Positions 261 through 21,748 of a DNA stretch of 34,281 bases are shown here, in pieces. This DNA is from Candidatus Levybacteria bacterium RIFCSPHIGHO2_01_FULL_38_26 (GTDB lineage: Bacteria; Patescibacteriota; Microgenomatia; Levybacterales; UBA12049). Numbering within the stretch: the stretch's first letter is position 1; each line of letters starts with the position of its first letter. The stretch spans positions 1-34,281 of the forward strand of contig MFNO01000027.1 in the NCBI GenBank assembly GCA_001782075.1, written 5' to 3'. The position numbers and the translations under genes were made by a program. The notes under the pieces are model-generated. The model ran no database searches. It was not told where the DNA came from and was given only the letters and a program-made list of their open reading frames with translations.

Positions 261-288
261 ATCATGAATTACGAATCATGAATCATGG
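261..288. repeat. Heptanucleotide array: ATCATGA ATTACGA ATCATGA ATCATGG
   Basis: Four consecutive degenerate 7-mers read directly; overlaps the 3' end (stop codon) of the four-helix-bundle gene. Confidence 0.8.
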
Positions 289-658
289 TTCTAGATTTTT
301 TAATAAGTCCATTTAATAGTTTGTTTATCGTGATCGTTTGCTCTGCCAAAGCTCTAAAGTCCTCTTTTGTTATATATCCTAGATCCCTTGCTATAATAAG
401 CTGATTCTGAACTTCTGTTAATGATCCAAGAGCCATAGAGTAAAATTGAGACTTCTCTTTATACGAATTTCTGCTAAATCCTTCCGCTATATTTGATGTT
501 ATAGAAACGACAGCCCTTCTTAATTGATTAATTAAGCCAAACTGTTCTTCTTTTGGGAATCCTTTTGTTACCCTATAAATTAGAAGAACCAAATTATGAG
601 CCTCTTTCCAAGCATTTAAGTCAGTGAAGGATTTTATCTTCTTATATTCTTGATTCAT
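269..658 (-). CDS. Four-helix-bundle protein (23S rRNA intervening-sequence/S23-like family, TIGR02436-type)
   Basis: 129 aa; LNAWKEAHNLVLLIYRVTKGFPKEEQFGLINQLRRAVVSITSNIAEGFSR is the characteristic family signature. Confidence 0.88.
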   Translation of the reverse strand: MNQEYKKIKSFTDLNAWKEAHNLVLLIYRVTKGFPKEEQFGLINQLRRAVVSITSNIAEGFSRNSYKEKSQFYSMALGSLTEVQNQLIIARDLGYITKEDFRALAEQTITINKLLNGLIKKSRTMIHDS

Positions 659-756: not shown

Positions 757-1251
757 TTATCTAGAGGCTGAGATTGTGGTTCCGCCTTCGGACCCGCAGG
801 CTGTGACAGTTACAATTCCGTTGGAATCAACATCAACTGCATATCCAGTTTCCGCGGCCGAGCCGATGTTTGGGTCAAGAGGAATTGATCGCAAGTATGG
901 AGCCAGATCAGTTGTGAGGTTCTCGCAGTCGTCCTCAGCAACGCCTATGTTACATACGCCAACTGTTCCACTGCATCCTCCTGAAGGCGCAGATCCCAAT
1001 TGCGTTATCAATGTACCTGCTTGTAAATTACCCGGGTAAGTTCCCCCTGTATCAACAATAAACTGATGGATTGCAGTAAGAATCGAGTCAACGTCTGAGG
1101 TTCTTCGCGCGTCTCTCGCGTCAGCCAGTCTCTGAGCCGGATTAATAGCCACAAATATAGCAACTGCCAGGGTCGCGATAATGGTGATAACTATAAGAAG
1201 CTCTATCAGGGTGAATCCTTTTTTGTTAGGGGTGGGCAGAATTTTTCTCAT
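757..1251 (-). CDS. Type IV pilin / pseudopilin (PilA/GspG-like)
   Basis: KKG|FTLIELLIVITIIATLAVAIFVAINPAQRLADARDARR: class III prepilin signal and pilin helix. Confidence 0.88.
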   Translation of the reverse strand: MRKILPTPNKKGFTLIELLIVITIIATLAVAIFVAINPAQRLADARDARRTSDVDSILTAIHQFIVDTGGTYPGNLQAGTLITQLGSAPSGGCSGTVGVCNIGVAEDDCENLTTDLAPYLRSIPLDPNIGSAAETGYAVDVDSNGIVTVTACGSEGGTTISASR

Positions 1252-1300: not shown

Positions 1301-2245
1301 TTATTGACTAATTGCGAGTGGTTTAATTATATTTTGATCTGGTGTTTGCTGGAACTGAAAGAACATAAATCCAAGAACAGCCAGAATTATAATAATTATA
1401 AAAGTTATAACGATTATACTTCTCCACCTCGAAGGAGTCCTTCGTCCCCCTTCGGTCCCCCCGCCCAAAAATAAATTCAGCACGTCTTCATCCCTGCCTC
1501 TTAGATCAACTTTTTCTGCCAAGCTAATAATAGGGCTTATATTCTGTATCCCAGCATTAAAACCCAAATTCTTGAATTTACCAATATCAATCGCCGATGT
1601 ATTCCCGCAAAAAACCAAATCCCTAACCTCTATTCCAAAACGGTCTTTTGCAAATTTTATAAATTGAGTTATTTTATCAACACTAATCTCTCTTATGTGT
1701 TCTGTGGATAAAACTGCTCCTTTTTGAACAAGCACAAGCAGCATATCATCCTGATTTATATAAACAAAAACTTTTTCTCTGTCCTCTTTTTGACTAAATC
1801 TTGCCAAAGCAATTGACAATGGCTCTATTGCCTCAACAGCAATTCCTGCTTTGGATAATCCCGAGGCGACAAAACCAAACATGGTCTTGGAAACGGCAAC
1901 AACTTGTAATCTAAATTTTCCCAATCCTTTTAACTGCCTGAAATCCCATAGGGTCTCGTCAAGGTTCTCCGGTATTATCTCCTGGGCAATTTTTTTAACA
2001 TCTTCTCTTGATTTAATCGAAGCATCAGGAGTCAAATTTGCTGTATAAACAAAATCCTCTACCAAAAGTACGCGGGCTGGCTGTTTAATATTTTTTTTAA
2101 ACTTAACTAAAATTTGAGCTAAATTATCAGAGGTCCACTCAATGTCCGCAACTTGCTCTTCTTTGGGTTTTGAGCCAGGACCAACATTGACAATTTTTAT
2201 CTTATTTCTGCTGATAAAAAGGATAGTTTTTTTGCTTCCAAACAT
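1301..2245 (-). CDS. PilM-like (actin-fold) pilus assembly protein with C-terminal transmembrane segment
   Basis: 314 aa in pilus operon; N-terminal region with PilM-like features (IAQEIIPENLDETLWDFRQL, VVAVSKTMFGFVASGLSKAGIAVEAIEPLSIALAR), C-terminal TM IIVITFIIIIILAVLGFMFF. Confidence 0.55.
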   Translation of the reverse strand: MFGSKKTILFISRNKIKIVNVGPGSKPKEEQVADIEWTSDNLAQILVKFKKNIKQPARVLLVEDFVYTANLTPDASIKSREDVKKIAQEIIPENLDETLWDFRQLKGLGKFRLQVVAVSKTMFGFVASGLSKAGIAVEAIEPLSIALARFSQKEDREKVFVYINQDDMLLVLVQKGAVLSTEHIREISVDKITQFIKFAKDRFGIEVRDLVFCGNTSAIDIGKFKNLGFNAGIQNISPIISLAEKVDLRGRDEDVLNLFLGGGTEGGRRTPSRWRSIIVITFIIIIILAVLGFMFFQFQQTPDQNIIKPLAISQ

Positions 2246-2255
2246 ATCTTAACCA

Positions 2256-2624
2256 TTATATCTCTTTCCAACTGTTAATTGTTATGGTATTAGACCTTGT
2301 TGCTTCTATACGAATCTTTTTAAAGTGATTTGAAATTTCTCCATCTACAGTAAATATCCAATCACTGCCAGTCTGAGATTCAAGGGTTACATTACATGAT
2401 CCTAAAGGAGTAACAATGCTTGAAGGCAAACTGTTGTTTTCATTTAAATACAAGAGCGCTTCCTGGCCGCAACCCTCTGAAAGACCCAATGCCCGGTCGC
2501 CCTGGAGGCTTGATAAAGACACCTGAGCCTCGCTGATAGAAGTTAGTGTTACAGTAACTCCGATAAGAGTCACAACTCCCGCGATCACAAGCATACTGGC
2601 AATGGCGATGTATCCTTTAATCAC
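2256..2624 (-). CDS. PilX/GspK-like minor pseudopilin (lacks Glu+5)
   Basis: MIKG|YIAIASMLVIAGVVTLIGVTVT: short leader, hydrophobic helix, no Glu at +5; last of the pseudopilin run; overlaps the upstream gene by 8 nt. Confidence 0.55.
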   Translation of the reverse strand: MIKGYIAIASMLVIAGVVTLIGVTVTLTSISEAQVSLSSLQGDRALGLSEGCGQEALLYLNENNSLPSSIVTPLGSCNVTLESQTGSDWIFTVDGEISNHFKKIRIEATRSNTITINSWKEI

Positions 2625-3129
2625 CCCTCACCTCCCCGCTCCCCTCAATCGTCTGACTCGAGTTAAATTCAGACCTATCGCTCACGGTCTCCGCGCTAAT
2701 GTTAAATTTTATATTTTCTGAAACTCCGCTTGAAAGATCTGTAAAAGTCAAGCTTGTGATAGAAATGCCCTCTGGGCTTAAAAAACATGGAGAACTTATC
2801 GGACATGAACCGGAAGAGCCAAAGCCGATTCTGATTCTTTGAGAATTCAAATCAATAACTGTCGGATTTCTTGAGGGATCGCTGTTAACAAGAGATATGC
2901 TTGAGCTGCTAACTGAATTAATCGATTGCGCGCTTCTGATTTCAAAAGATATTCTTTTGGCGGCAAAACGAAGACTGTGATTTAGATCCTGCTGAATAGA
3001 ACTCTTTGCCCTAGCATATATAACGTCCCAGGCAAAATTAACTGCACCGACAATAAAAATGCTCACAATAGTAATGTATATTATAAGCTCGATGAGAGTG
3101 AAACCTTTACATTTCTGCATATTTTTCAT
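2617..3129 (-). CDS. Minor pseudopilin (PilW/GspJ-like)
   Basis: CKG|FTLIELIIYITIVSIFIVGAVNFAWDVIYARAKSSIQQDLNHSLRFAAKRISFEIRSA. Confidence 0.8.
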   Translation of the reverse strand: MKNMQKCKGFTLIELIIYITIVSIFIVGAVNFAWDVIYARAKSSIQQDLNHSLRFAAKRISFEIRSAQSINSVSSSSISLVNSDPSRNPTVIDLNSQRIRIGFGSSGSCPISSPCFLSPEGISITSLTFTDLSSGVSENIKFNISAETVSDRSEFNSSQTIEGSGEVRGD

Positions 3130-3141
3130 GACGATTTAAAC

Positions 3142-4240
3142 TCATTTAATCTTCAACGAAGTATACTGTCCCACATCTCCCAACGACTGAATAGTAATTC
3201 TGGTCCAGTTCCCCGAACTTGTGCATCCTGTTTCACAACTGATAAACTCAAGATCTTTCGCGCTTTCATTATAATACGACACTCGCGGTCTTCCGCCATC
3301 AAGATGAAGCGAAGAAAACTTACCCCTGCTACCGGGCGGCCCTGTAATATCTCCCGAAGACCAGTTTGAGGAAACAGTGCAATTGGAATTACACTCCGCG
3401 TATTTCAATCTGGTACCGGACTCACGGAAATAGCTTATCCTTGGATTACCGGAGGAATCAATAGCCATAGATGTGTGTAAACCAGTTGTCGCTGGAGCAT
3501 CAACCACCACTTTTGCCCAAGCCGAGCTACCGCTGGTGCAGCTTGTATTGCACTGCGCGTATTTTAGGTCTTTGTTTGATTCTTCATAATAGGAAATTCG
3601 CGGATTGCCTGAAGAAAAAGCAAGCGAAGCATAAGTTCCTGTTTCACCTGACGCGTCTACCACGGTATTTGACCAGTTTGAGGAAACAGTGCAATTGGAA
3701 CTGCACTGCGCGTATTTTAGGTCTTTGTTGGAAAGATTGTAATAAGCTATGCCAACTTTTGTACCATCAGCCCCGATCGATGTAAACTGGCCTGTATCTC
3801 CGCCAGAATCAATAGTAATGGTAGTCCAATTAGTGCTTAACGCACAATCAGCGCTGCATTGTGCGTATCTTAGATCTAAAGAGTCTTTATAATGATAAGA
3901 AATACGCGGGCTTCCGTTTTGAAAAACCAAAGACGTATACTCTCCTACATCGTTTGTTGAGTCAACGGCAACAATATCCCAGTTGGAAGCGTTTGTGCAG
4001 TTCGAACTGCACTGCGCGTATTTTAGGTCTTTGTTTGATTCTTCATAATAAGAAACTCCTACCCTCGAACCGTCAACATCCAAGGATGCATATTTACCAA
4101 CGTCATCCGCCCCGTCAATAGTCACAGTAGTCCAGTTGGAGGCTGTGGTGCAATTTGACGCGCACTCCGCGTACTTGAGGTCTTTGTTTGATTCATCATA
4201 ATAAGCGATGCGCGCCAAAACAGAAGCAGAAATAATGCTT
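3142..4240. repeat. Seven tandem ~140-155 bp coding repeats
   Basis: Recurring block such as actgcgcgtattttaggtctttgtttgattcttcataata near 3551, 3702, 4010 and a variant near 4160. Confidence 0.8.
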
Positions 4241-4719
4241 TTATCCCATTGAGTCAAATAAGTCACAAGATCAACCGAATTAATTCTGGTCGGAGAAAAA
4301 TTCCACGTCACATTTGAGGTGATCTTAAAAAGATCGCTGTCGACTGTACCGCCGCTATCTACAATACTTCCGCTTCCGTCCCGTTGTCCCTGAGCAATAG
4401 TTACTTCGCGCCTATATTTATCATTTGTATCGAACGGTCCTGAAAAATTCCACTGACCGCCACTACTACTCAAGCCAAATGTCCCCTCCGACAAATTGCT
4501 GAAATCCCGATTTTTTATCGACAAGACTCCCTCAATTCCCTCCTGCGCGTATAAATTCGCGAATGCCTCTTCCTTCCCCAGCCGGTTAACATTAAAAGCC
4601 TGAAGCACAGCTGTCACCCCGCCTGTCGCGACAAGCATAAAAATAGCCATAGCTATGATTAGCTCAATCATGCCAAAGCCCCTTTCGGAAGTAAGAAGTT
4701 TTCCTTGTATTCTATTCAT
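3142..4719 (-). CDS. Minor pilin (PilV/GspI position) fused to seven ~50-aa beta-propeller-like repeats
   Basis: N-terminus SERG|FGMIELIIAMAIFMLVATGGVTAVLQAF (prepilin motif, Glu+5); C-terminal seven repeats of the form (R/G)(I/V)(S/A)Y...S.(K)DLKYA(Q/E)CxxxC....NW......D.....G.(Y/F).S(L/I). Confidence 0.85.
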   Translation of the reverse strand: MNRIQGKLLTSERGFGMIELIIAMAIFMLVATGGVTAVLQAFNVNRLGKEEAFANLYAQEGIEGVLSIKNRDFSNLSEGTFGLSSSGGQWNFSGPFDTNDKYRREVTIAQGQRDGSGSIVDSGGTVDSDLFKITSNVTWNFSPTRINSVDLVTYLTQWDKSIISASVLARIAYYDESNKDLKYAECASNCTTASNWTTVTIDGADDVGKYASLDVDGSRVGVSYYEESNKDLKYAQCSSNCTNASNWDIVAVDSTNDVGEYTSLVFQNGSPRISYHYKDSLDLRYAQCSADCALSTNWTTITIDSGGDTGQFTSIGADGTKVGIAYYNLSNKDLKYAQCSSNCTVSSNWSNTVVDASGETGTYASLAFSSGNPRISYYEESNKDLKYAQCNTSCTSGSSAWAKVVVDAPATTGLHTSMAIDSSGNPRISYFRESGTRLKYAECNSNCTVSSNWSSGDITGPPGSRGKFSSLHLDGGRPRVSYYNESAKDLEFISCETGCTSSGNWTRITIQSLGDVGQYTSLKIK

Positions 4720-4728
4720 TATTGAAAA

Positions 4729-5163
4729 TTAATCCACCCCTATCATCCCCGCCCCATTCACGCTCACTGTCCTTATCCCAATATCTGTTGAAATTGTAAT
4801 CGTAAGCGTACCAGAAGGTTCTCCGCGAAGCGTTGAAAAAGTCGTGTCTGACAAACCGGATACCGCTACAGACCCCGGAACGTCAAAGTCTTCTGAAAAA
4901 GCAGGAGTAGCGCAAGAACCCCGGTACAAACGAATTTTATTTCCAGCTGCCAAACATACTCCCCAGAGAGATTGGTTTCTTCCAGACATTGAATAACCTT
5001 GCGCTTTTCTAAGAGAACTTAGAACTTTATCAACCGTTGTCTCGTAGTTGTTGCGCAAAATAAAATTTGACAAAAAAGGAGTTGCAGCCGTCCCCACGAT
5101 GGCAATAAGGGCGATGATTAAAATAAGTTCGATTACTGTAACACCGCGAGATTTGTGATTCAT
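4729..5163 (-). CDS. Minor pseudopilin (FimT/GspH-like)
   Basis: MNHKSRG|VTVIELILIIALIAIVGTAATPFLSNFILRNNYETTVDKVLSSLRKAQGYSMS. Start set to the internal ATG at 5163, because the listed ORF start at 5205 lies in repeat-derived sequence. Confidence 0.8.
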   Translation of the reverse strand: MNHKSRGVTVIELILIIALIAIVGTAATPFLSNFILRNNYETTVDKVLSSLRKAQGYSMSGRNQSLWGVCLAAGNKIRLYRGSCATPAFSEDFDVPGSVAVSGLSDTTFSTLRGEPSGTLTITISTDIGIRTVSVNGAGMIGVD

Positions 5164-5203
5164 AAGTCTATTTTTTATTGTTGATTCATATTGACTTTTA
5201 AGC

Positions 5204-5287
5204 AAGAATAATGAATCAAGAATTATGAATCATGGATTTAATTAGGTAGTTTTCCTTGATTCTTGATTCATGCTTCATGATTCATTT
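5204..5287. repeat. Pair of oppositely oriented heptanucleotide arrays separated by a short spacer
   Basis: Left AAGAATA ATGAATC AAGAATT ATGAATC ATGGATT (5204-5238); right CCTTGA TTCTTGA TTCATGC TTCATGA TTCATTT (to 5287). Confidence 0.8.
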
Positions 5288-5293
5288 TCAATA

Positions 5294-6340
5294 TTATCTT
5301 ATCGACCCTGTCAGCTCGTATATCGGTGAGATAATTGCCAAGGCGACAAATCCCACTACAAGTCCAATCACGACAAGAATTACAGGCTCAAGGACTACCG
5401 AGAGGTTTTTGGCTATATTATCTACCTCCTCATCAAAAAAATCCGAGAGGTACAAAAACGACTCGTCAAGACTTCCGGTTTTCTCCCCAACAGCTATCAT
5501 CTTAACCGCAACTTGGGAAAATTTAGAATAATGACCGGAATTAAGCTCTAAGGCTATTTCTTTACCCTTATCAACAGACTTTTGTATTCGCGCTATATAG
5601 TCTTTGAATACATAATTTCCGCATGCCTCATGTTCGATGCTAAGCGCTTTTGTTATCGGAAGGCCGCTTTTTAACATTACGCCAAGATTTCGGCAAAGCA
5701 GAGCAAGTTCGCGATTTTGAATTAAAGGTCCAAAAATCGGAAAAGACAATACCATTCTGTCCCATTTAGGCCTAACCGCCCTCAGACTTATTAGGACGCG
5801 GAATAGCACTATGGCTCCAATAAAACCACCAGCCACCAGAAATCCGCTATTTTTCATAATGTTTGCGAAAAATAAAAGGATTTGGGTAGTTAATGGAAGA
5901 CTAACATCTAGAGATTCGAAAAGATCAACTAGCTTTGGGAGAACAAACAAACTCATTCCAATTCCCACCAATGTAATAGCTCCAACTACAATTGTGGGAT
6001 ACAACAATGCTCCTTGAATTTTCTTTCTGAGTTCATATTCCTGGGAAAGCTGTTTGACAAGGTAATCGAGGGTTTTATCCAGTGTTCCAGATTCCTCTCC
6101 AATTTCTACAAGGCTGACAAAAAACTGATCGAATATTTTGGGATGCCTTTTTAAGGCTTTTGCTAGAGTTTGACCGTTTCTGATATCTTTCTCAACAATA
6201 TCTAAGACTTTACGCAGTTTTACTGATTTTGTCTGAGAAGCAATCGCTTCGATAGAATCAGCAACTACAATCCCGCTTTTTGTCATTACCAGCAAGTGTT
6301 TGGTAAAGAGTAATTTTTCAACAAAACTGACATTACCCAT
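5294..6340 (-). CDS. pilC: Type IV pilus inner-membrane platform protein PilC/GspF
   Basis: GQTLAKALKRHPKIFDQFFVSLVEIGEESGTLDKTLDYL and KMIAVGEKTGSLDESFLYLSDFFDEEVDNIAKNLSVVLEPVILVVIGLVVGFVALAIISPIYEL. Confidence 0.93.
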   Translation of the reverse strand: MGNVSFVEKLLFTKHLLVMTKSGIVVADSIEAIASQTKSVKLRKVLDIVEKDIRNGQTLAKALKRHPKIFDQFFVSLVEIGEESGTLDKTLDYLVKQLSQEYELRKKIQGALLYPTIVVGAITLVGIGMSLFVLPKLVDLFESLDVSLPLTTQILLFFANIMKNSGFLVAGGFIGAIVLFRVLISLRAVRPKWDRMVLSFPIFGPLIQNRELALLCRNLGVMLKSGLPITKALSIEHEACGNYVFKDYIARIQKSVDKGKEIALELNSGHYSKFSQVAVKMIAVGEKTGSLDESFLYLSDFFDEEVDNIAKNLSVVLEPVILVVIGLVVGFVALAIISPIYELTGSIR

Positions 6341-6342
6341 AA

Positions 6343-8028
6343 TTATTCTTTCGTGACCCTCACCACTTCCTCAATCGTCGTTACTCCCTCCTTAACCTTC
6401 TCAAGCCCATCTTCAATCATGGTTGTCATGCCGTTTTTCACAGCAATTTTTTTGATAAAAGCTGCATCCTTTCTTTGCATGATTGCTTCTCGTACCTCAT
6501 CACCAACTGTCAAAACTTCAAATATCCCAATTCTACCCTCATATCCAATGCCGTGATCAAACTCGCAGCCCTTACCGCGGTATATTCGAACACTCTTCTC
6601 ATTTCCAAAAACTTTCTTAAGAAAGCTCATCTCGACATACTTTGTTAAATCGCCCATTTTTACCTCCTCGCTTACTCTACAACGAGAATGGATTTTTCGA
6701 ACCAATCTTTGAGCAATGATCACATTTACTGTTGAGGCAATAAGAAATGGCTCAACATTCATGTCCAAAAGCCTTGGAATAGCCGTTGCGGCGTCATTTG
6801 TGTGAACAGTTGACAAAACAATATGTCCAGTCATGGCGGAGTTTATAGCGATATCTGCTGTCTCATAATCCCTGATCTCGCCGACCAGAATTATATCCGG
6901 ATCCTGGCGAACAATTGACCTTAAGCCTGCCGCAAAAGTCAAATTAGTTTTTTCATTCACCTGAATTTGATTCACTCCTTCAACATCGTATTCAACTGGA
7001 TCTTCAATGGTCATTATATTAACGTCTCTTTTGTTTAAAAGCTTTAAAACGGCATACACAGTAGTTGTCTTACCAGAACCTGTTGGACCCGTTGCCAAAA
7101 TCATCCCATAAGGCTTACTGTATGCTTTCTTAACTTTGTTAAGATCATTTTGCGAAAGACCCAGATCGATTAAAGAAAACTGCCTTGAGCGCTCAGACAA
7201 AAGCCTCATCACTATCTTCTCCCCACCTGTTATTGGAACAGTCGATACACGAACATCCACCTGTTCATCCTCAACTCCAACTTGCAGTTTTCCGTCCTGC
7301 GCAGAGCTATGCTCATCTGTCCGCAATCCTGAGAGAACTTTTATTCTTATGACAATCGGCTTATGAAGCTCAAGCGGCAATGATAAAATATCATGAAGCA
7401 CGCCGTCTATTCTAAACCGAATCAGGGATTTTCCTTTCTCGGGTTCAATGTGAACATCTGAAGCCTTATTCTGATAGGCAAAATGCAAGATCGCGTCGAC
7501 AATTTTTGTAATCGGCGGGTCTGCCTGTTTACCGGATGCAGAGCTTGCCTGTCTTACATTTTCTTTTATAATCTCATCAAAGGTTGAAGAAAGATCCTTG
7601 TTATATAAATAAAGAGCGTTATTTACATCTCTTTTTGTCGCGTAATAAACAATAACCGGGATTCCGACCTTCTTCTCTATAAAATCTTTTATCTGTAAGT
7701 TGCCTGGATCCGACATCGCGATTGACAAGCCATTTTTGTCTTTTCCAAACGCGATTACTTTCTGTTTTTTAGCCACCACTTCAGGAACAAGATTTAAAAT
7801 CTCGGTCGGTATAGAAATGTCGCTTAGTTTTATAAAAGGAAGAGATAACAACTCGGAGATTGTTTTACCTATATTTTCGTCTGAAATTAAATCTTTTTCA
7901 ACAAGTACATCCTCAAGAGAAACATTTTCCTGCCTGCTTTGCGCTAAAGCACCATCCAGCTGATTTTTCTCAATTACCTCAAGCTCTGATAAAGCATTGT
8001 AAAGTGATTCGTTGTCATAGGAAGACAT
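6343..8028 (-). CDS. pilB: Type IV pilus extension ATPase PilB/GspE
   Basis: Walker A GPTGSGKTTTVYAVL, Asp box MTIEDPVEYDVEGVNQIQVNEKTNLTFAAGLRSIVRQDPDIILVGEIRDYETADIAINSAMTGHIVLSTVHTNDA. Confidence 0.95.
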   Translation of the reverse strand: MSSYDNESLYNALSELEVIEKNQLDGALAQSRQENVSLEDVLVEKDLISDENIGKTISELLSLPFIKLSDISIPTEILNLVPEVVAKKQKVIAFGKDKNGLSIAMSDPGNLQIKDFIEKKVGIPVIVYYATKRDVNNALYLYNKDLSSTFDEIIKENVRQASSASGKQADPPITKIVDAILHFAYQNKASDVHIEPEKGKSLIRFRIDGVLHDILSLPLELHKPIVIRIKVLSGLRTDEHSSAQDGKLQVGVEDEQVDVRVSTVPITGGEKIVMRLLSERSRQFSLIDLGLSQNDLNKVKKAYSKPYGMILATGPTGSGKTTTVYAVLKLLNKRDVNIMTIEDPVEYDVEGVNQIQVNEKTNLTFAAGLRSIVRQDPDIILVGEIRDYETADIAINSAMTGHIVLSTVHTNDAATAIPRLLDMNVEPFLIASTVNVIIAQRLVRKIHSRCRVSEEVKMGDLTKYVEMSFLKKVFGNEKSVRIYRGKGCEFDHGIGYEGRIGIFEVLTVGDEVREAIMQRKDAAFIKKIAVKNGMTTMIEDGLEKVKEGVTTIEEVVRVTKE

Positions 8029-8039
8029 ATTATTTGCAT

Positions 8040-8432
8040 CTATTGAGTATTTGCCGCATTTGGCTGCAACCCTATCATACTGTCAATCTTTTTTACTAAA
8101 TCATTCAAGGTAAAATCAGTTTTTACAAAAAATTCAGAAGCTCCCAATTGCATTCCCTTTTCCCTGTCTTCTTTTTGGCCAAGATTTGACGCAAGTATTA
8201 TTGGGATATTCTTCCATTTCTCATTTGCTTTTATCTCCGAAAGGGTTGCAAAACCGTCTTTTTTTGGCATAACTATATCCAAAAGTATCAGGTCTGGCGT
8301 GAATGTCCGCAATATACTAACTGCCTCAACCCCATCATAAGCATTCTTGACCTCAAATCCAACTTTACTTAGTTTTACTCTGTAAGCATTGGCAAGATAG
8401 GTATCATCTTCAACAACCAGTATTTTTGCCAT
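8040..8432 (-). CDS. Single-domain response regulator (CheY-like receiver)
   Basis: ILVVEDDTYLANAYRVKL, DLILLDIVMPKKDG, conserved K (FFVKTD); no output domain. Confidence 0.92.
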   Translation of the reverse strand: MAKILVVEDDTYLANAYRVKLSKVGFEVKNAYDGVEAVSILRTFTPDLILLDIVMPKKDGFATLSEIKANEKWKNIPIILASNLGQKEDREKGMQLGASEFFVKTDFTLNDLVKKIDSMIGLQPNAANTQ

Positions 8433-8439
8433 AGAATCT

Positions 8440-8832
8440 TTATTCCAATTTTTCCTTAACTTTTTTAATAACTTCGCTTACTGGATGTTCTACTTTTACC
8501 AAATAATCTGTATTTCCAGCCTGAAGAACCTCTGTCATTTTTTGGTCATCATAAAGATTGGTCAAAATTATAATCGGGATATTTTTAGTTTCCTCATTCT
8601 GTTTTAACTCTTTTAATACTGAAATTCCATCAAGCTTTGGCATTATTATATCCAAAAGAATTAGATCAGGCTTGTCTTCTTGAATTTTTTGCAGAGCCTG
8701 CTCTCCATCCTCAACGGCGTCAACCAAAAAACCCTCTGCCTCAAGCTTTGGAGTCAAGACATTCACTACAATCTCTTCGTCATCAACTATAAGGATTTTT
8801 TTAGGATTTTTCATTTCTTTGTTTTTCGACAA
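8440..8832 (-). CDS. Single-domain response regulator (CheY-like receiver)
   Basis: ILIVDDEEIVVNVL, DLILLDIIMPKLDG, YLVKVEH; overlaps the upstream gene. Confidence 0.92.
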   Translation of the reverse strand: MSKNKEMKNPKKILIVDDEEIVVNVLTPKLEAEGFLVDAVEDGEQALQKIQEDKPDLILLDIIMPKLDGISVLKELKQNEETKNIPIIILTNLYDDQKMTEVLQAGNTDYLVKVEHPVSEVIKKVKEKLE

Positions 8833-9205
8833 ATTCTTTAACGAATTTAATAATTTCGTCCAAACGATTTTCAGCTTTAAGATAATACTTTTTTACTCCT
8901 AAAGCAAGCATGTTGTTAACCTTCTCATCGCTTGCCGAATTGCTTACTACTATAGTTGGGATACCAACCAGCTTGTCGTTCTTCCGTATATTATTCATAA
9001 ACTCAAGCCCGTTCATATCGCTGAGGTAATAATCAAGCCATATTACGTCAGGCAATTTTTCAGACTCCGAAAGTATCTTTAGCGCTTCATCTCCCCTTGC
9101 TACTGGAATAACAGATAAACCATTAAACTTAAGTTTCCTGGCAATGGCTTCAAGCAATAGCTGTTCGTCTTCAATTACCAAAACTGTGTAATTTTTTGTA
9201 TCCAT
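8801..9205 (-). CDS. Single-domain response regulator (CheY-like receiver)
   Basis: VLVIEDEQLLLEAIARKL, DVIWLDYYLSDMNG, YYLKAEN. Confidence 0.9.
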   Translation of the reverse strand: MDTKNYTVLVIEDEQLLLEAIARKLKFNGLSVIPVARGDEALKILSESEKLPDVIWLDYYLSDMNGLEFMNNIRKNDKLVGIPTIVVSNSASDEKVNNMLALGVKKYYLKAENRLDEIIKFVKEFVEKQRNEKS

Positions 9206-9255
9206 CTTAGTCTATTTTGCTCTTTCCAAGTATCAACTGTCAAGATACAACTGTG

Positions 9256-10797
9256 TCAACCACTTGCATCAATACTTACCTCTCCACTTTTAGGAGGCGT
9301 ACCTGAAATAGGAAGACTAAACCAAAAAGTCGTCCCTTTTCCCTCCATGCTTTCAAACCATATCTTACCTTTTGACGACTCAAGAATTGCCTTTACCAGA
9401 TAAAGCCCCAGTCCTGTTCCGTCTGTTACAATTTTTGCTACATTTTCAGCCCGATAGAATTTTTCAAAAATCTTACTTTGATCTTTTTGGGGTATGCCGC
9501 AGCCGTTATCGCTAACCTGGGAAACAACCTGATCTCCTTTCTTGGATAAAAACACTGTAATCTCACCCTTCTCCTGCGTGTATTTGATCGCGTTTGAAAG
9601 AAGATTCATGTAAACCTGGCGTATTAACTTTGGATCGATATTTATCTTTGGAAGGTCTCCGTGGATACTCACGACCGGTGATATTTTCTTCTCGTCAATT
9701 TTTGACTGCAGCTCTTTCAACACATCTTTTACCAAAGCTCCAAGATCCGTGGGCTGAGGGTCTATAATTATGCGCCCCGATTCGATTCTTGAAATATTTA
9801 AAATTGTAGCCACAAGGTTTATCATCCGCTCGTTGGACTTGTGAAGGTTTGTCATAAGCTCTGCCTGATCTTGAGTCAAAGGACCAGCATCTCCGTCCAA
9901 AAGCATTTCGGAGAACCACTTAATGGCAGAAAGTGGAGTTCTGAGCTGATGTGATGCAAGCGAAATAAATTCCGTTTTCATTCTATCAATATCTTTCTCT
10001 TTTGTGGTATCTCTAATTATCGTGATTGTTCCTGACACCACGCCTCCGATAATAACAGGGTTTACAGTAACTGCGGCTGGAAATTTTGTCTTATTGCTCC
10101 TCTCGTAATAAAGCGTGTGAAGAACGCTTGTGGTTGCCTTTCTGCCTGAATCCAGAGCAACAAATACGGGATTATCAGCTTTGGGCACTCTTTTTCCATT
10201 TTCATAATAAACCGCAATCAACTCATCCATATTTTTTCCTGCAACTTCCTCCAATTTAAAACCAAACAGCTCTTCTGCCGAACTATTTATCATTCTAAGC
10301 TTGCCTTTCTCATCTGTAACAATCATTCCGTCGCCGATACTTTCAAGTATTGCTTCATCCCGCTTCTTTTCTTGCTCAAGCGTGGTGCCTTCTGATTTTA
10401 GATCCTCCAAAACATTAAGCAATGCCCTTTTGACATCTTCCAATGTCCTGGAACTCTTAAGAAGTTCCATTTCCCTATAGGTAACTTTATCCTGGTAGAG
10501 ATTTTTATATTCAATATTAAGATTTTTCGATATCTCTTTTATGTCTTTTTTTAGCTCTATCATCTTTAACTCTCTATCAATCATTATCTTATTAAATCTT
10601 TCTATATCTTTTATATTCTTTTCAACCAGCTTAAAAACAAGAAGAGAATTCAAAATTAAAACTGAGACAAAAAAAAGACTAATACCAAGGATTGTTTGAG
10701 TTTCTACGCTCAAGGCAAAAAGCAGGAAAAAGGTTATTAGGGTCTGCGCAATTATAGCCGTTGCAAGGATCAACACCGGCCTTCCCGATATCTTCAT
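9256..10797 (-). CDS. Membrane PAS-domain sensor histidine kinase
   Basis: Two N-terminal TMs; PAS ([31 protein letters not shown]); H-box [23 protein letters not shown] boxes [59 protein letters not shown] upstream of ATG. Confidence 0.95.
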
Positions 10798-17347: not shown

Positions 17348-18799
17348 CTAACCTGCGGTAACTGCGCTTCTTACAAACTCCTGTGCCCATTCATAGATAT
17401 TTTTCTCATCCAAAACTTCTGCCATATTTTTTATCCTCTTTATTTTTTCAGCATCGCTCATTTCAAGGCCTTTTTTTATAGCGCCCACAACCTGATCTAT
17501 ATCGTATGGATTTACTATTAGTGCCTGTGTTAAGTCTATCGCGGAACCGGCAAACTGAGAAAGTACAAGCATACCAGGAGTCTTTGCAAAAAAAGAAGCA
17601 ACCACGAATTCTTTTGAAACCAGATTCATACCGTCATCCAAAGGCGTCACGAGACAAATATCTGCTTTGTTATAAAAATTAACTATTTTTTCTCTGGAAA
17701 ATAATTTGTAAATAAGATGAATCGGCTGCCATTTATTTGTCCCGTATTTTTTGTTGATAAGCTTAGCCGAAGCCTCTATTTCTTTTTTAAGAGTTTCGTA
17801 GGCTGGAATTTTCTCCCTTGAGGGAGCAAGAATTCCCGCGTAAACTACTTTGCCTATATATTGGCTGTTCCTTTCAAAAAATCTGTCAATTGCCATCAGT
17901 CTTACTTTTAGCCCTTTTGTATAATCCAGCCTATCAACTCCTAAGATCATCCTATTTCCATCTGTTAAAAATCCATTAATGCCGTTTTCCTTGCTTCCAA
18001 TCTGTTCTTTATCAATCAGTGACTTAATTACATCTGTGTCTATTCCCATAGGAAGATTTTTAACCGTTGTCAAGCTTCCGTTGTAATGAATTGTACTGGT
18101 CTCCTCATCAATTCTTGCTTCAAGCTCCCGTCTCACCGTATCTAGGAAGTTCCTCGCCTGATAACCTCTATGAAATGCTAATAAATCACACTTCAAGATG
18201 CTTTCCAGAATATCTTTTTTCCATGGCAGTATACGGAACACTTCCCATCTGGGCCAGGGAATATGCCAGAACATCGCGATTTTGGTATTTTTTGGCTTAT
18301 CAAGATATTTAGGAACAAGACAAAGCTGATAATCGTTCACCCATACAAAAGTCTTCCCTTTAATCTCTTCTTTTATGCTCTGGGCAAATTTTTGATTTAC
18401 TTTTTTAAATCCTTCATACCATTTTTTGTGGAACGCAGGTCTTTCCCAGGCAACATGACAAAGGGGCCAAAGAGTTTGATTTGAGAAGCCGTAATAATAA
18501 GAATCTATATCTTCTTGGCTAAAAAAAAGTCTCTTGAGGGTGTATTTCCCATCTAGATCATCTACCTCTAATCTGCTATCTTCAAGTTTTTTTTCTACGT
18601 CATTTTTACCACGGGCTATATAAACAGCACCAGAGGCTTTTGCTATTGGGTCCAAGGCAACCGACACTCCGCCTGCCGGGATTTTCTCTATAATCGTATC
18701 TCCTTTTTTCTCTGCAATACGCGTCTCCGCGTCAGCAGCGATTATGGTCTTAACTTTCTGATTTTTGAAAAAATCTTTAAGATCGGGGTACGAAATCAT
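17348..18799 (-). CDS. otsA: Trehalose-6-phosphate synthase-like glycosyltransferase (GT20)
   Basis: FWHIPWP, LLAFHRGYQARNFLDTVRR, LGVDRLDYTKGLKVRLMAIDRF, DDGMNLVSKEFVV, LSQFAGSAIDLTQALIVNPYD. Confidence 0.88.
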   Translation of the reverse strand: MISYPDLKDFFKNQKVKTIIAADAETRIAEKKGDTIIEKIPAGGVSVALDPIAKASGAVYIARGKNDVEKKLEDSRLEVDDLDGKYTLKRLFFSQEDIDSYYYGFSNQTLWPLCHVAWERPAFHKKWYEGFKKVNQKFAQSIKEEIKGKTFVWVNDYQLCLVPKYLDKPKNTKIAMFWHIPWPRWEVFRILPWKKDILESILKCDLLAFHRGYQARNFLDTVRRELEARIDEETSTIHYNGSLTTVKNLPMGIDTDVIKSLIDKEQIGSKENGINGFLTDGNRMILGVDRLDYTKGLKVRLMAIDRFFERNSQYIGKVVYAGILAPSREKIPAYETLKKEIEASAKLINKKYGTNKWQPIHLIYKLFSREKIVNFYNKADICLVTPLDDGMNLVSKEFVVASFFAKTPGMLVLSQFAGSAIDLTQALIVNPYDIDQVVGAIKKGLEMSDAEKIKRIKNMAEVLDEKNIYEWAQEFVRSAVTAG

Positions 18800-18841
18800 T
18801 AAACGCTAGTATAGCATATTGCAAATATTTTTCAAAAGAAG

Positions 18842-19936
18842 TTATTTTGAAGAAGACAAATAGGTGTTAATGTAAGTCTTCCAATTTTTCATGGCGGTGC
18901 TGTAAGCGTCTTCATAACCTTCAACCATCTTTTCTATGCTAAATTTACTCTCCACGTTGTCTCTGCAATCTCTTCTATTAAGTTGATCTACGTACTTCAT
19001 TTTCTCAACCATCTGATCTAGCGTATCTACCAAAAATCCTGTTTTACCATCGACTATAACCTCCGGAGCAGCTCCTCTATTGAATGAAATAACTGGTGTA
19101 CCAGTAGCTTGGGACTCTGCCATAACGAGCCCAAAGGGTTCCTCCCAAAGAATAGGATTAAGAAAAGCTTTTGCACCTGCCAAATATTTTGCCTTCCTAT
19201 CCGTCTCTACCTCTCCAATCCAAATAATATTTTTACCATCTATAAGAGGACTTATTTCCTTCTCATAATATTGAAGAAGGTGCGGTACGCCCCTATCCAC
19301 AACTCCCATGACATAAAGCTTAACTCCTGCCCTTTTTGCGGCCAGGATTGCCTCTTTTGTCCCCTTCAGGGGATTTATTTTTCCAAGCCAGACAAAATAG
19401 TCACTATGAGTTTCGGAGAATGGATAGCTTTTTATATCCAAGGAATTATAGACTGTTTTTATATAGTTGAGCTGGGTCGGCTTTCTTTGTGAATTTGATA
19501 TTGATGTAAAAGGAAGATCTCTGTATTTGTTCAAAACCAAATACCTGTCTTTGTTGTACGTCGGTGTTGGCACTTTAAAATGGAGAGTAAATACGACCGG
19601 GGTTTTTGAGAGAAGAGAAAGAGGAAGAGAAAGGTAGTCCTGGCTTTTGTTAACATGCATGTGGATGACATCAAATTCACCTGCTTTCTCAAAACTCTGA
19701 GCTAGATGAAAAAGAGTGTAGGAAACATTAGTCCACTCAACACTTTGTTCTCTAAGGGGCATTTCAACTGTCGGAAAAACTTTTGCTTTTACTTTTGCGT
19801 TTCTTGCCCCAAAGAAAGTAACATCATGTCCTTTGTCAACCAATCCATTGACTAAATTATAAACAACATATTCTGTCCCGCCGTAACCTTTTGGCGGGAT
19901 CTCCAGCCAAATAGGAGCAATAACGCCTATCTTCAT
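18842..19936 (-). CDS. Glycosyltransferase family 4
   Basis: IPPKGYGGTEYVVYNLVNGLVDKGHDVTFFG; FVWLGKINPLKGTKEAILAAK; ILWEEPFGLVMAESQATGTPVISFNRGAAPEVIVDGKTGFLV. Confidence 0.9.
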   Translation of the reverse strand: MKIGVIAPIWLEIPPKGYGGTEYVVYNLVNGLVDKGHDVTFFGARNAKVKAKVFPTVEMPLREQSVEWTNVSYTLFHLAQSFEKAGEFDVIHMHVNKSQDYLSLPLSLLSKTPVVFTLHFKVPTPTYNKDRYLVLNKYRDLPFTSISNSQRKPTQLNYIKTVYNSLDIKSYPFSETHSDYFVWLGKINPLKGTKEAILAAKRAGVKLYVMGVVDRGVPHLLQYYEKEISPLIDGKNIIWIGEVETDRKAKYLAGAKAFLNPILWEEPFGLVMAESQATGTPVISFNRGAAPEVIVDGKTGFLVDTLDQMVEKMKYVDQLNRRDCRDNVESKFSIEKMVEGYEDAYSTAMKNWKTYINTYLSSSK

Positions 19937-20065
19937 TTGCTCCTCTATTATAGACTAGATTTTTAGAGAATGTAAATAAGTAGTTTTAACCCGTCTAAAG
20001 ATGTGGAAATAAATACTATTTAATATATCGTAATATATTAAAAGGTTAAGCAAGATATCAATTTT

Positions 20066-21748
20066 TCAAGTTCTGCTGGGAAAAACTTCCTCTTCGAGTT
20101 GTCTTTTATCTTGATCAATAGCAACTGTTGGCAACCTCTCTTGACGACCCAAAACTTGATTGCCTCTTTTATACTTGGCATCAACCATTGCCGCCACAGT
20201 CCATGCTTGGATTTCTTGAGGGGGCTGCTCAATTCTATTTCTGCGATTGTTAGTTTCATCCCATAAATCGACAATACGCGTATTTAACATTGGCTCGGGT
20301 TCGTCTCCGCCACGGGCAAACTCTGGAAATTTGTGGAATTTATCAACTACAGACCAGATCCTGCGGTTTAACTCCGCTGATAGTCCATAAAAACCATGTC
20401 TTTCAAGGCCTTGAGAGATATAATACGTATCCCACAGCCATACATTACCATTGTGATATCTACCCGGCCAAAATCTTACTTCATCGGATGCCAAAGTCCT
20501 AATACCGCTTGCAGCAAGCATTTCTTTGGAAAAAAGAGTTTTAATAACTTTATTTCGTTTGTCTAAAATTTCTGGATCATCTCCATCGAGGATTCGAGAA
20601 TTCAGTAAATGCCCCATGTTGGATGTCCGTATCTTAAGTTGCCTCAAGATACCATTGTCGTCTCGGTCAGTACCAAGAACAAAATAACCACCCTTTTCGT
20701 CTTCAACCCAAAACTTCTCCATAACCATTTTCTTTAAATTTTCAGCTCTTTTTTTAAAATCCATAACCTCATCTTTATAGACTTGTCTTTGTCCTCCTGG
20801 AAGAGCTTCCATTAATTTCTCGTATGTTTCTGATGCCCCGAGCATTGCATCGAAGGCTTGAGCTTGTACCTCAATTGAGGCAATACCTTGTTTGTGATTA
20901 GCCATTGTTCCATCTTTGTGATGATAAGAATCCCACGAGTCTTTCCAGACTTGATTTTGGTGACTTCCTTTAAATAATGCTTTGGATTCTATCAATCCTT
21001 CTTCATTTTTTACCTCAACATTTTCCCCATTTTCGTTTTCAATCATCCTATAATCCATGCGATGTTTTATCCAAGAAGTCGCAGTTTTTAATGAATCGCC
21101 AATTGTATGTTCTTGCCCGTCTTTTCCAAGAAATTGCTGGTTTAAGAAATTAATTCCTTCTGAGCTCTTCTTGCAATATTCTGAAATAGCATTAACATAA
21201 GAAACAGTAGCATCAACGGAGGCATAGTACGGCCACTCCCAACCATGTTCTTGAGTAATTCTTTGAGCAATAGAGTCGGTTGCTGGATCACGATATTCAT
21301 GGATTATTCTACCTACTTGCTCCTCACTTTTGATATTTTCCCTTACGCCCTGAAGCTGGGCAAGATTCAAAATTGTTGTTTTAAGAAGTTCGGGATAATG
21401 GTCTGAGACATCAAGGGCTACCCGAAGAGAATCCCTGCCAAACAATACCTCAAATTTCCGCAAAGCTTCTATCCCTTCATTCTCTTTTACGGCGCGTGAG
21501 GCAACGCTTGGCCCATGCAAGCCAATTTCTCGAAAGCTACCACCAACATCAACACCTGCTAATATTTTTAAAGCCTTAAGAGAAGATGGATATTCATTTG
21601 GAGTTTTTATAATTGGTGTTTCAACATTTATTACTCGCTCGCCAGGTTTTAAAAATGGAATAAAATCCGGTACTTCAGCTCTCCTATCCAAAGCAGCTGG
21701 TTTTTCGGAAATTGGTTGCATGGGCTGAATTTCTTGTTTTCCTTCCAT
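20066..21748 (-). CDS. Amylo-alpha-1,6-glucosidase / GDE-like six-hairpin glycosidase
   Basis: FEVLFGRDSLRVAL, ASVDATVSYVNAISEYCK, IASIEVQAQAFDAM, RFWPGRYHNGNVWLWDTYYISQGLERHG, PPQEIQAWTVAAM. Confidence 0.75.
   Translation of the reverse strand: MEGKQEIQPMQPISEKPAALDRRAEVPDFIPFLKPGERVINVETPIIKTPNEYPSSLKALKILAGVDVGGSFREIGLHGPSVASRAVKENEGIEALRKFEVLFGRDSLRVALDVSDHYPELLKTTILNLAQLQGVRENIKSEEQVGRIIHEYRDPATDSIAQRITQEHGWEWPYYASVDATVSYVNAISEYCKKSSEGINFLNQQFLGKDGQEHTIGDSLKTATSWIKHRMDYRMIENENGENVEVKNEEGLIESKALFKGSHQNQVWKDSWDSYHHKDGTMANHKQGIASIEVQAQAFDAMLGASETYEKLMEALPGGQRQVYKDEVMDFKKRAENLKKMVMEKFWVEDEKGGYFVLGTDRDDNGILRQLKIRTSNMGHLLNSRILDGDDPEILDKRNKVIKTLFSKEMLAASGIRTLASDEVRFWPGRYHNGNVWLWDTYYISQGLERHGFYGLSAELNRRIWSVVDKFHKFPEFARGGDEPEPMLNTRIVDLWDETNNRRNRIEQPPQEIQAWTVAAMVDAKYKRGNQVLGRQERLPTVAIDQDKRQLEEEVFPSRT

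What the first reader, a model, noticed from the sequence alone, without database searches (positions are those of the whole stretch)
3142..4719. Minor pilin fused to a seven-repeat beta-propeller-like domain: candidate one-polypeptide pilus-tip adhesin
Sequence: an N-terminal prepilin signal (SERGFGMIELIIAMAIF) is followed by exactly seven ~50-aa repeats ending in DLKYA-CxxxC-NW...SL. The gene sits in the PilV/GspI position of a FimT-PilV-PilW-PilX-like run (4729, 3142, 2617, 2256). Knowledge: in Pseudomonas and Neisseria the minor-pilin complex carries a separate beta-propeller protein (PilY1/PilC) at the pilus tip, encoded with the minor pilins. Inference: this genome may have merged minor pilin and tip propeller into one covalent protein, suitable for host/prey attachment in a cell lacking an outer membrane. 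No separate PilY1-like gene is visible here.
Basis: partly seen in the sequence, partly recalled or inferred. Interest (0 to 1): 0.78.

Follow-up and report, generated by a model that had tools for sequence, protein, structure and literature searches.

The report
Pilin carrying a seven-bladed propeller head
This small, apparently host-dependent bacterium makes a minor pilus subunit with a seven-bladed, ring-shaped binding domain fused to it, one of a large family of pilins with exchangeable heads that probably let such cells grip other microbes; the idea is already published for a related group, but this head and the extent of the family appear not to be.

Summary
ORF 3142-4719(-) is a 525-aa prepilin (SERG|FGMIE, Pfam N_methyl over cut-off) with seven 51-53-aa repeats and seven CxxxC pairs. 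AlphaFold2, with only one homologue row, gives a confident seven-bladed, 28-strand propeller for residues 165-525 (pLDDT 86.8, pTM 0.89). The array starts and ends with complementary half-repeats and is a half-blade permutation of secreted seven-repeat relatives. Both point to a closed ring.

The reading needs correcting. This is not a merger of PilV with PilY1, and not unique as a type. It is a modular minor pilin on a PilV/GspI-like carrier found throughout this class (probably Patescibacteria). At least 111 of 373 genomes encode such a PilV in a frame of 400 aa or more; most carry an LVIVD propeller. The same genome has a second pilin-propeller (LVIVD) in a parallel PilT-less pilus locus. 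The window protein lies in a clade where the head is exchanged; its DLKYA head on a pilin was seen only here.

The idea is published: TM7x PilX2, a propeller minor pilin, is needed for normal host binding, and modular pilins are an established kind. Tip display and binding remain inferred. New variant of a known kind.

The parts
3142..4719 (-). PilV/GspI-like modular minor prepilin, 525 aa (finding)
   Evidence: ORF; N_methyl over cut-off; weak TIGR01707 gspI, 20.6 bits against cut-off 44.35
4678..4719 (-). Prepilin leader, residues 1-14 (MNRIQGKLLTSERG), predicted PilD cleavage before F15, Glu at +5
   Evidence: sequence; N_methyl match residues 11-33
4234..4677 (-). Pilin module: N-terminal helix plus globular part, residues 15-162
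   Evidence: 44-48% identical to the pilin part of the nearest relatives; profile A1 matches genome-wide
3145..4227 (-). Seven-bladed beta-propeller head, residues 165-525; seven CxxxC pairs; the seventh blade is formed by both ends
   Evidence: AF2 pLDDT 86.8, pTM 0.89, 28 strands; unit HMM; Foldseek to propellers; half-blade permutation
4729..5205 (-). FimT/GspH-like minor pilin
   Evidence: N_methyl motif; synteny
2617..3129 (-). PilW/GspJ-like minor pilin
   Evidence: N_methyl over cut-off; synteny
2256..2624 (-). PilX/GspK-position small protein, no Glu5-type motif, no family match
1301..2245 (-). Conserved membrane-anchored pilus-operon protein (only a weak DUF3822 match)
757..1251 (-). 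Major-pilin-like PilA
   Evidence: N_methyl over cut-off, GspG-like
5294..6340 (-). PilC platform protein (T2SSF)
   Evidence: Pfam T2SSF 8e-55
6343..8028 (-). PilB extension ATPase
   Evidence: T2SSE 425 bits
8040..9205 (-). Three stand-alone receiver proteins in tandem (8040-8432, 8440-8832, 8801-9205)
   Evidence: translations; conserved beside pilB in relatives
9256..10797 (-). PAS-histidine kinase heading the cluster
   Evidence: Pfam HisKA/HATPase_c/PAS; synteny

Best explanation
The protein is a modular minor pilin. Its N-terminus is a PilV/GspI-type ('I' subunit) prepilin, to be cut by PilD after Gly14. Its C-terminus (residues 165-525) is a seven-bladed beta-propeller, probably cross-braced by one CxxxC disulfide per blade. 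The pilin part would join the FimT-PilV-PilW-PilX complex that starts and caps the filament, so the propeller would be displayed at the tip of a second, PilT-less type IV pilus and serve as its ligand-binding head, most likely on the surface of another microbe. Shown here: the fusion, the repeat architecture, the operon context and the family with exchanged heads. Predicted: the closed propeller fold. Inferred from other systems: cleavage, disulfides, tip position and binding.
For: Prepilin motif over cut-off. Seven repeats beyond chance. Confident 7x4-strand propeller model with one homologue row, matching propeller enzymes and the CV39L lectin in the PDB. Units counted with a model built from this protein also number seven in several unrelated secreted relatives. 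The ends are complementary halves, and the array is a half-blade permutation of those relatives, which a closed ring tolerates. Conserved operon order with different heads at the same position. Wide class distribution of PilV with large C-terminal modules, and a tree showing a head-exchanging clade that holds the window protein. No secretin. Published parallels: TM7x PilX2, a propeller minor pilin whose deletion halves host binding (PMC12206443); S. sanguinis modular pilins in a tip complex with an I-like subunit (PMC9934059; PMC8179133).
Against: No experiment places this protein in a filament or at its tip. The full-length model without homologues was useless (pLDDT 34.5), so the pilin-propeller geometry is unknown. 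GspI assignment is weak (20.6 bits, cut-off 44.35). In S. sanguinis the I-like subunit carries no module, so a head on subunit I is not the studied arrangement. No ligand or binding site was tested. The organism and its lifestyle are inferred.
Confidence: 0.68

Rival explanations
1. The propeller pilin belongs to a secretion-type pseudopilus (T2SS-like) and handles a secreted substrate rather than binding outside surfaces.
For: The best, though weak, family hits are T2SS pseudopilins (GspI); this locus has PilB/PilC but no PilT, and no secretin is found anywhere in the genome, so a short pseudopilus is possible.
Against: A PilA-like major pilin is in the operon; no secreted-substrate cluster was seen; in TM7x the PilT-less second system makes real thin pili whose propeller pilin serves host binding (PMC12206443).
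Confidence: 0.13
2. The head is structural: a bulky cap that primes or stabilises filament assembly, like the assembly role of PilY1, with binding secondary.
For: In one of the two clades the LVIVD-cluster head is kept in all 98 rows, as expected for a structural part; TM7x pilX2 deletion changed filament number and length (PMC12206443).
Against: In the window's own clade the head is replaced by unrelated folds or nearly lost (L018, L015) with the operon intact, unlike a required structural part.
Confidence: 0.13
3. True pilin-PilY1 merger: the propeller descends from a PilY1 C-terminal domain.
For: Both are seven-bladed propellers associated with minor pilins (for this one; PMC12206443 for PilY1).
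Against: No PF05567 match at E <= 1; sequence relatives are secreted DLKYA-repeat proteins, not PilY1; PilY1 not found in 280 class and 380 phylum genomes, although no positive control rang.
Confidence: 0.03
4. The repeats form an open beta-solenoid or beads rather than a closed ring.
For: The motif alone does not name a fold; no Pfam propeller family matched.
Against: Confident 28-strand model, propeller hits by Foldseek, seven units also in several relatives, complementary end halves.
Confidence: 0.03

Closest known systems
PilX2 of Nanosynbacter lyticus TM7x (PMC12206443)
   Same: Minor pilin with a C-terminal seven-bladed propeller in a Patescibacteria genome with more than one pilus system; belongs to the system without PilT; deletion reduced host binding from about 10.6% to 4.6% of host cells.
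   Different: RCC1-type repeats, not DLKYA; no predicted PilD signal there, a clear one here; homology of the two pilin parts was not tested.
Modular pilins PilB (vWA) and PilC (lectin) of Streptococcus sanguinis (PMC8179133, PMC9934059)
   Same: Pilin module plus grafted binding domain, monoderm cell, proposed tip complex in place of PilY1.
   Different: Other folds; there the I-like subunit (PilA) has no module, here the I-like subunit carries it.
PilY1/PilC tip adhesin (PF05567)
   Same: Seven-bladed propeller associated with the minor pilins.
   Different: Separate non-pilin protein; no sequence match to the window propeller.
LVIVD-propeller PilV proteins of the same class (L011, L022, L031, L036 and cluster 1), including G000 contig C17
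   Same: Same pilin family, same operon position, repeat head expected to be a propeller.
   Different: Unrelated head with PF08309 LVIVD repeats and a further C-terminal domain. LVIVD (IPR013211) pilins appear in the modular-pilin survey PMC8179133 as 'motif of unknown function'.
CV39L / PLL-type seven-bladed lectins (PDB 6gxs)
   Same: Fold similarity to the model, TM about 0.6, E about 5e-9.
   Different: 10-12% identity, no sequence match in the PDB search; sugar sites not tested.

Membership tests
Modular type IV (minor) pilin | Class III prepilin signal peptide with Gly-1 and Glu+5 | tested here: met
   SERG|FGMIE; PF07963 over cut-off
Modular type IV (minor) pilin | Extra C-terminal domain not specific to pilus biology | tested here: met
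   Seven-repeat propeller whose relatives are secreted non-pilin proteins
Modular type IV (minor) pilin | Pilin-like globular module between helix and extra domain | tested here: met
   Residues 15-162 match a pilin profile found across the class
Modular type IV (minor) pilin | Assembly into a filament and a direct function of the extra domain | not testable with these tools
   needs microscopy and binding assays
GspI / PilV (subunit I of the HIJK complex) | Curated GspI score (TIGR01707, cut-off 44.35) | tested here: not met
   20.6 bits; the assignment rests on gene order and weak similarity, so 'I-like', not a GspI member
GspI / PilV (subunit I of the HIJK complex) | Gene order FimT(H)-PilV(I)-PilW(J)-PilX(K) | tested here: met
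   window and four relatives (G019, G032, G042, G048)
PilY1/PilC | PF05567 C-terminal domain | tested here: not met
   no match at E <= 1
PilY1/PilC | Non-pilin protein separate from the minor pilins | tested here: not met
   prepilin signal and fusion in one ORF
TM7x PilX2-type RCC1 propeller pilin | RCC1 repeats | tested here: not met
   no RCC1 match at E <= 1
Seven-bladed beta-propeller | Seven four-stranded blades, closed by joining the ends | tested here: met
   prediction only: 28 strands, pLDDT 86.8; complementary end halves
PLL-type lectin | Sequence family and sugar-binding residues | tested here: inconclusive
   fold match only, no sequence match

The most novel reading that the evidence does not exclude
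In this class the PilV/GspI-like subunit is a dedicated head carrier, and one clade of it exchanges unrelated recognition heads (several beta-repeat types, the DLKYA propeller, C1q-like and Ig-like sandwiches) on a constant pilin in a constant operon, much as phages exchange tail-fibre tips, so that the head sets which microbe the epibiont can grip.
Probability: 0.3. Interest if true: 0.7.

Novelty: new variant of a known kind. Interest (0 to 1): 0.46.

Why it matters
How ultrasmall, probably epibiotic bacteria recognise their hosts is an open question. A conserved pilin that presents different predicted binding heads gives a list of candidate recognition proteins that can be expressed and tested without cultivation, and it extends the single studied case (TM7x PilX2) to a family found across the class. 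The DLKYA propeller adds a new head type and a clear example of a permuted, self-closing propeller shared between secreted proteins and a pilus subunit.

Tried and rejected
Full-length AF2 without homologues: pLDDT 34.5, unusable. Viral collection with three propeller queries, and plasmids: no relatives. Genome collection: one relative, a secreted Elusimicrobia protein. PilY1 search in own genome, class, phylum and the Elusimicrobia genome: nothing over threshold, but no positive control rang over its cut-off, so absence is not proven. PADLOC: no hit. Search of PDB sequences: only a chance collagen match, E 0.12. Considered and rejected: PilY1 merger, open solenoid, chance repeat. The careful tree did not finish; the quick tree is quoted.

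Full report
OBSERVATION. The ORF at 3142-4719(-) exists and encodes 525 aa. The N-terminus MNRIQGKLLTSERG|FGMIELIIAMAIF is a class III prepilin leader with Gly at -1 and Glu at +5. Pfam N_methyl scores 23 bits (cut-off 21.2). Residues 186-525 hold seven CxxxC pairs with spacings 51, 51, 51, 51, 53, 52, and these pairs contain all 14 cysteines of the protein. The best 40-residue self-match scores 163 BLOSUM units, against at most 43 in 100 shuffles. At DNA level the first four units are 48-64% identical, but patches of 47 and 69 nt reach 94% and 88%, which looks like local exchange between blades.

FOLD. The array is not seven simple copies. A model of the single unit finds six full units, a leading half (163-185) and a trailing half (495-525), which together make the seventh. 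The same model finds seven units in several relatives from other families of the phylum (L066, L067, L070, L079, L086), and the Elusimicrobia relative L034 shows seven LKY motifs. These relatives carry no pilin part, and several start with an ordinary signal-peptide-like stretch; their arrays begin half a blade earlier. The window array is thus a half-blade circular permutation of theirs; L069 and L071 have the same permuted start. Fixed number, complementary ends and permutation are what a closed ring predicts. AlphaFold2 on residues 165-525 with a single homologue row (L034) gives mean pLDDT 86.8, pTM 0.89 and 28 strands, that is seven blades of four. Foldseek finds many propellers: BT3686 and BACCELL_00856 glycoside hydrolases, the CV39L lectin and 6-phosphogluconolactonase, with TM-scores of about 0.56-0.64 and 9-18% identity. 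The full-length protein folded alone gave nothing useful (pLDDT 34.5), so the joint geometry of pilin and propeller is unknown.

CONTEXT. The window is contig C27 of a 1.13-Mb genome, 98.5% complete. The operon runs histidine kinase, three receivers, PilB, PilC, FimT, PilV, PilW, PilX, a membrane-anchored protein, PilA. Essentially the same order is found in relatives G019, G032 and G042, and in G048 with the kinase and a receiver displaced. The genome has three PilB and one PilT-like ATPase. PilT sits with PilB and PilC on contig C16, the contig that also holds PilMNO-like proteins, PilD and a short PilV (166 aa) without a head. The two further systems, the window and contig C17, have no PilT beside them, and in both the PilV carries a large head. 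The C17 protein (554-aa frame, cut by the contig end) has LVIVD repeats (PF08309, 1.9e-11). Contig C36 ends with PilW-PilX-PilA genes and may be the missing half of the C17 locus (inference). This parallels TM7x, where the second, PilT-less system carries the propeller pilin PilX2 (PMC12206443).

FAMILY. A profile of the pilin part (A1) matched 318 of 373 class genomes at E <= 1e-6. Of the 150 matches printed in that listing, 124 lie in frames of 400 aa or more, in 111 of 131 genomes. These are lower bounds because the listing was cut, and the profile was built mostly from fusions, which biases towards them. Across the phylum, 116 of 381 genomes match at E <= 1e-15, with frames up to 1733 aa. 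Among 131 fetched proteins, single-linkage clustering of the C-terminal parts gives 102 in one cluster (LVIVD in the four members tested), 21 in a second beta-repeat cluster, and small groups, with the window alone in its own. In a quick tree of the pilin parts the window lies in a 32-row set (support 98) that holds seven head groups, while the other 98 rows all carry the LVIVD-cluster head. The head is therefore exchanged in one clade and kept in the other. The DLKYA head is found in 14 of 380 phylum genomes, but on a pilin only in the window, among the fetched proteins.

MECHANISM. Published work places the H-I-J-K minor pilins at the filament tip, with subunit I starting assembly, and notes that monoderms lack PilC/PilY1 and that S. 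sanguinis uses modular pilins as tip effectors (PMC9934059). A head on the I-like subunit would be displayed at the tip. In TM7x, deletion of the propeller pilin lowered host binding from about 10.6% to 4.6% (PMC12206443). The best reading is that this protein is the binding head of a second, non-retracting or differently retracting pilus. Cleavage, disulfides, tip position and ligand are not shown. That PilT does not also serve this system is likewise not shown.

There is no sign that PilY1 was merged into a pilin: no PF05567 match in the protein, and the propeller's sequence relatives are secreted repeat proteins. PilY1 was not found in the genome, class or phylum, but no positive control rang, so I do not claim its absence. 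The one-polypeptide principle is known (modular pilins, PMC8179133; PilX2, PMC12206443). [quoted passage not shown] IPR013211 = LVIVD).

NOVELTY. New variant of a known kind: a new propeller type on a pilin, on the I-like subunit, with a class-wide family and a head-exchanging clade that I did not find described (paper searches; only open-licence papers were searched).

Noticed in passing
G000 contig C17:34691-36314 (L011, L012, L044): Second pilin-propeller fusion in the same genome, LVIVD type, in a parallel receiver-PilB-PilC-FimT-PilV locus cut by the contig end; C36 (L014) may hold the rest (PilW, PilX, PilA).
   Followed up: partly
Class survey: PilV proteins with LVIVD propeller heads are very common and kept in one large clade; the second cluster of 21 beta-repeat heads has no Pfam head match in the three members tested.
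   Followed up: partly
window 3142-4215: Short DNA patches between blades are 88-94% identical while whole units are about 48-64%, suggesting exchange between blades.
   Followed up: partly
window 8040-10797: Three tandem stand-alone receiver proteins and a PAS-histidine kinase head the pilus operon, and related genes stay there in relatives.
   Followed up: partly
window 269-658: Small protein resembling the four-helix-bundle (S23-like) family beside pilA; by eye only.
   Followed up: no
L197:2593-3369 (contig C16): YD/Rhs-repeat-like ORF downstream of the PilB-PilT-PilC genes of the main pilus locus.
   Followed up: no
L079, L086, L090 (G497): One genome of the phylum encodes several secreted DLKYA propellers, two of them close together on contig C103.
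   Followed up: no
window 17348-21748: Glycosyltransferase family 20, a group-1 glycosyltransferase and a GDE_C-like glucosidase side by side.
   Followed up: no
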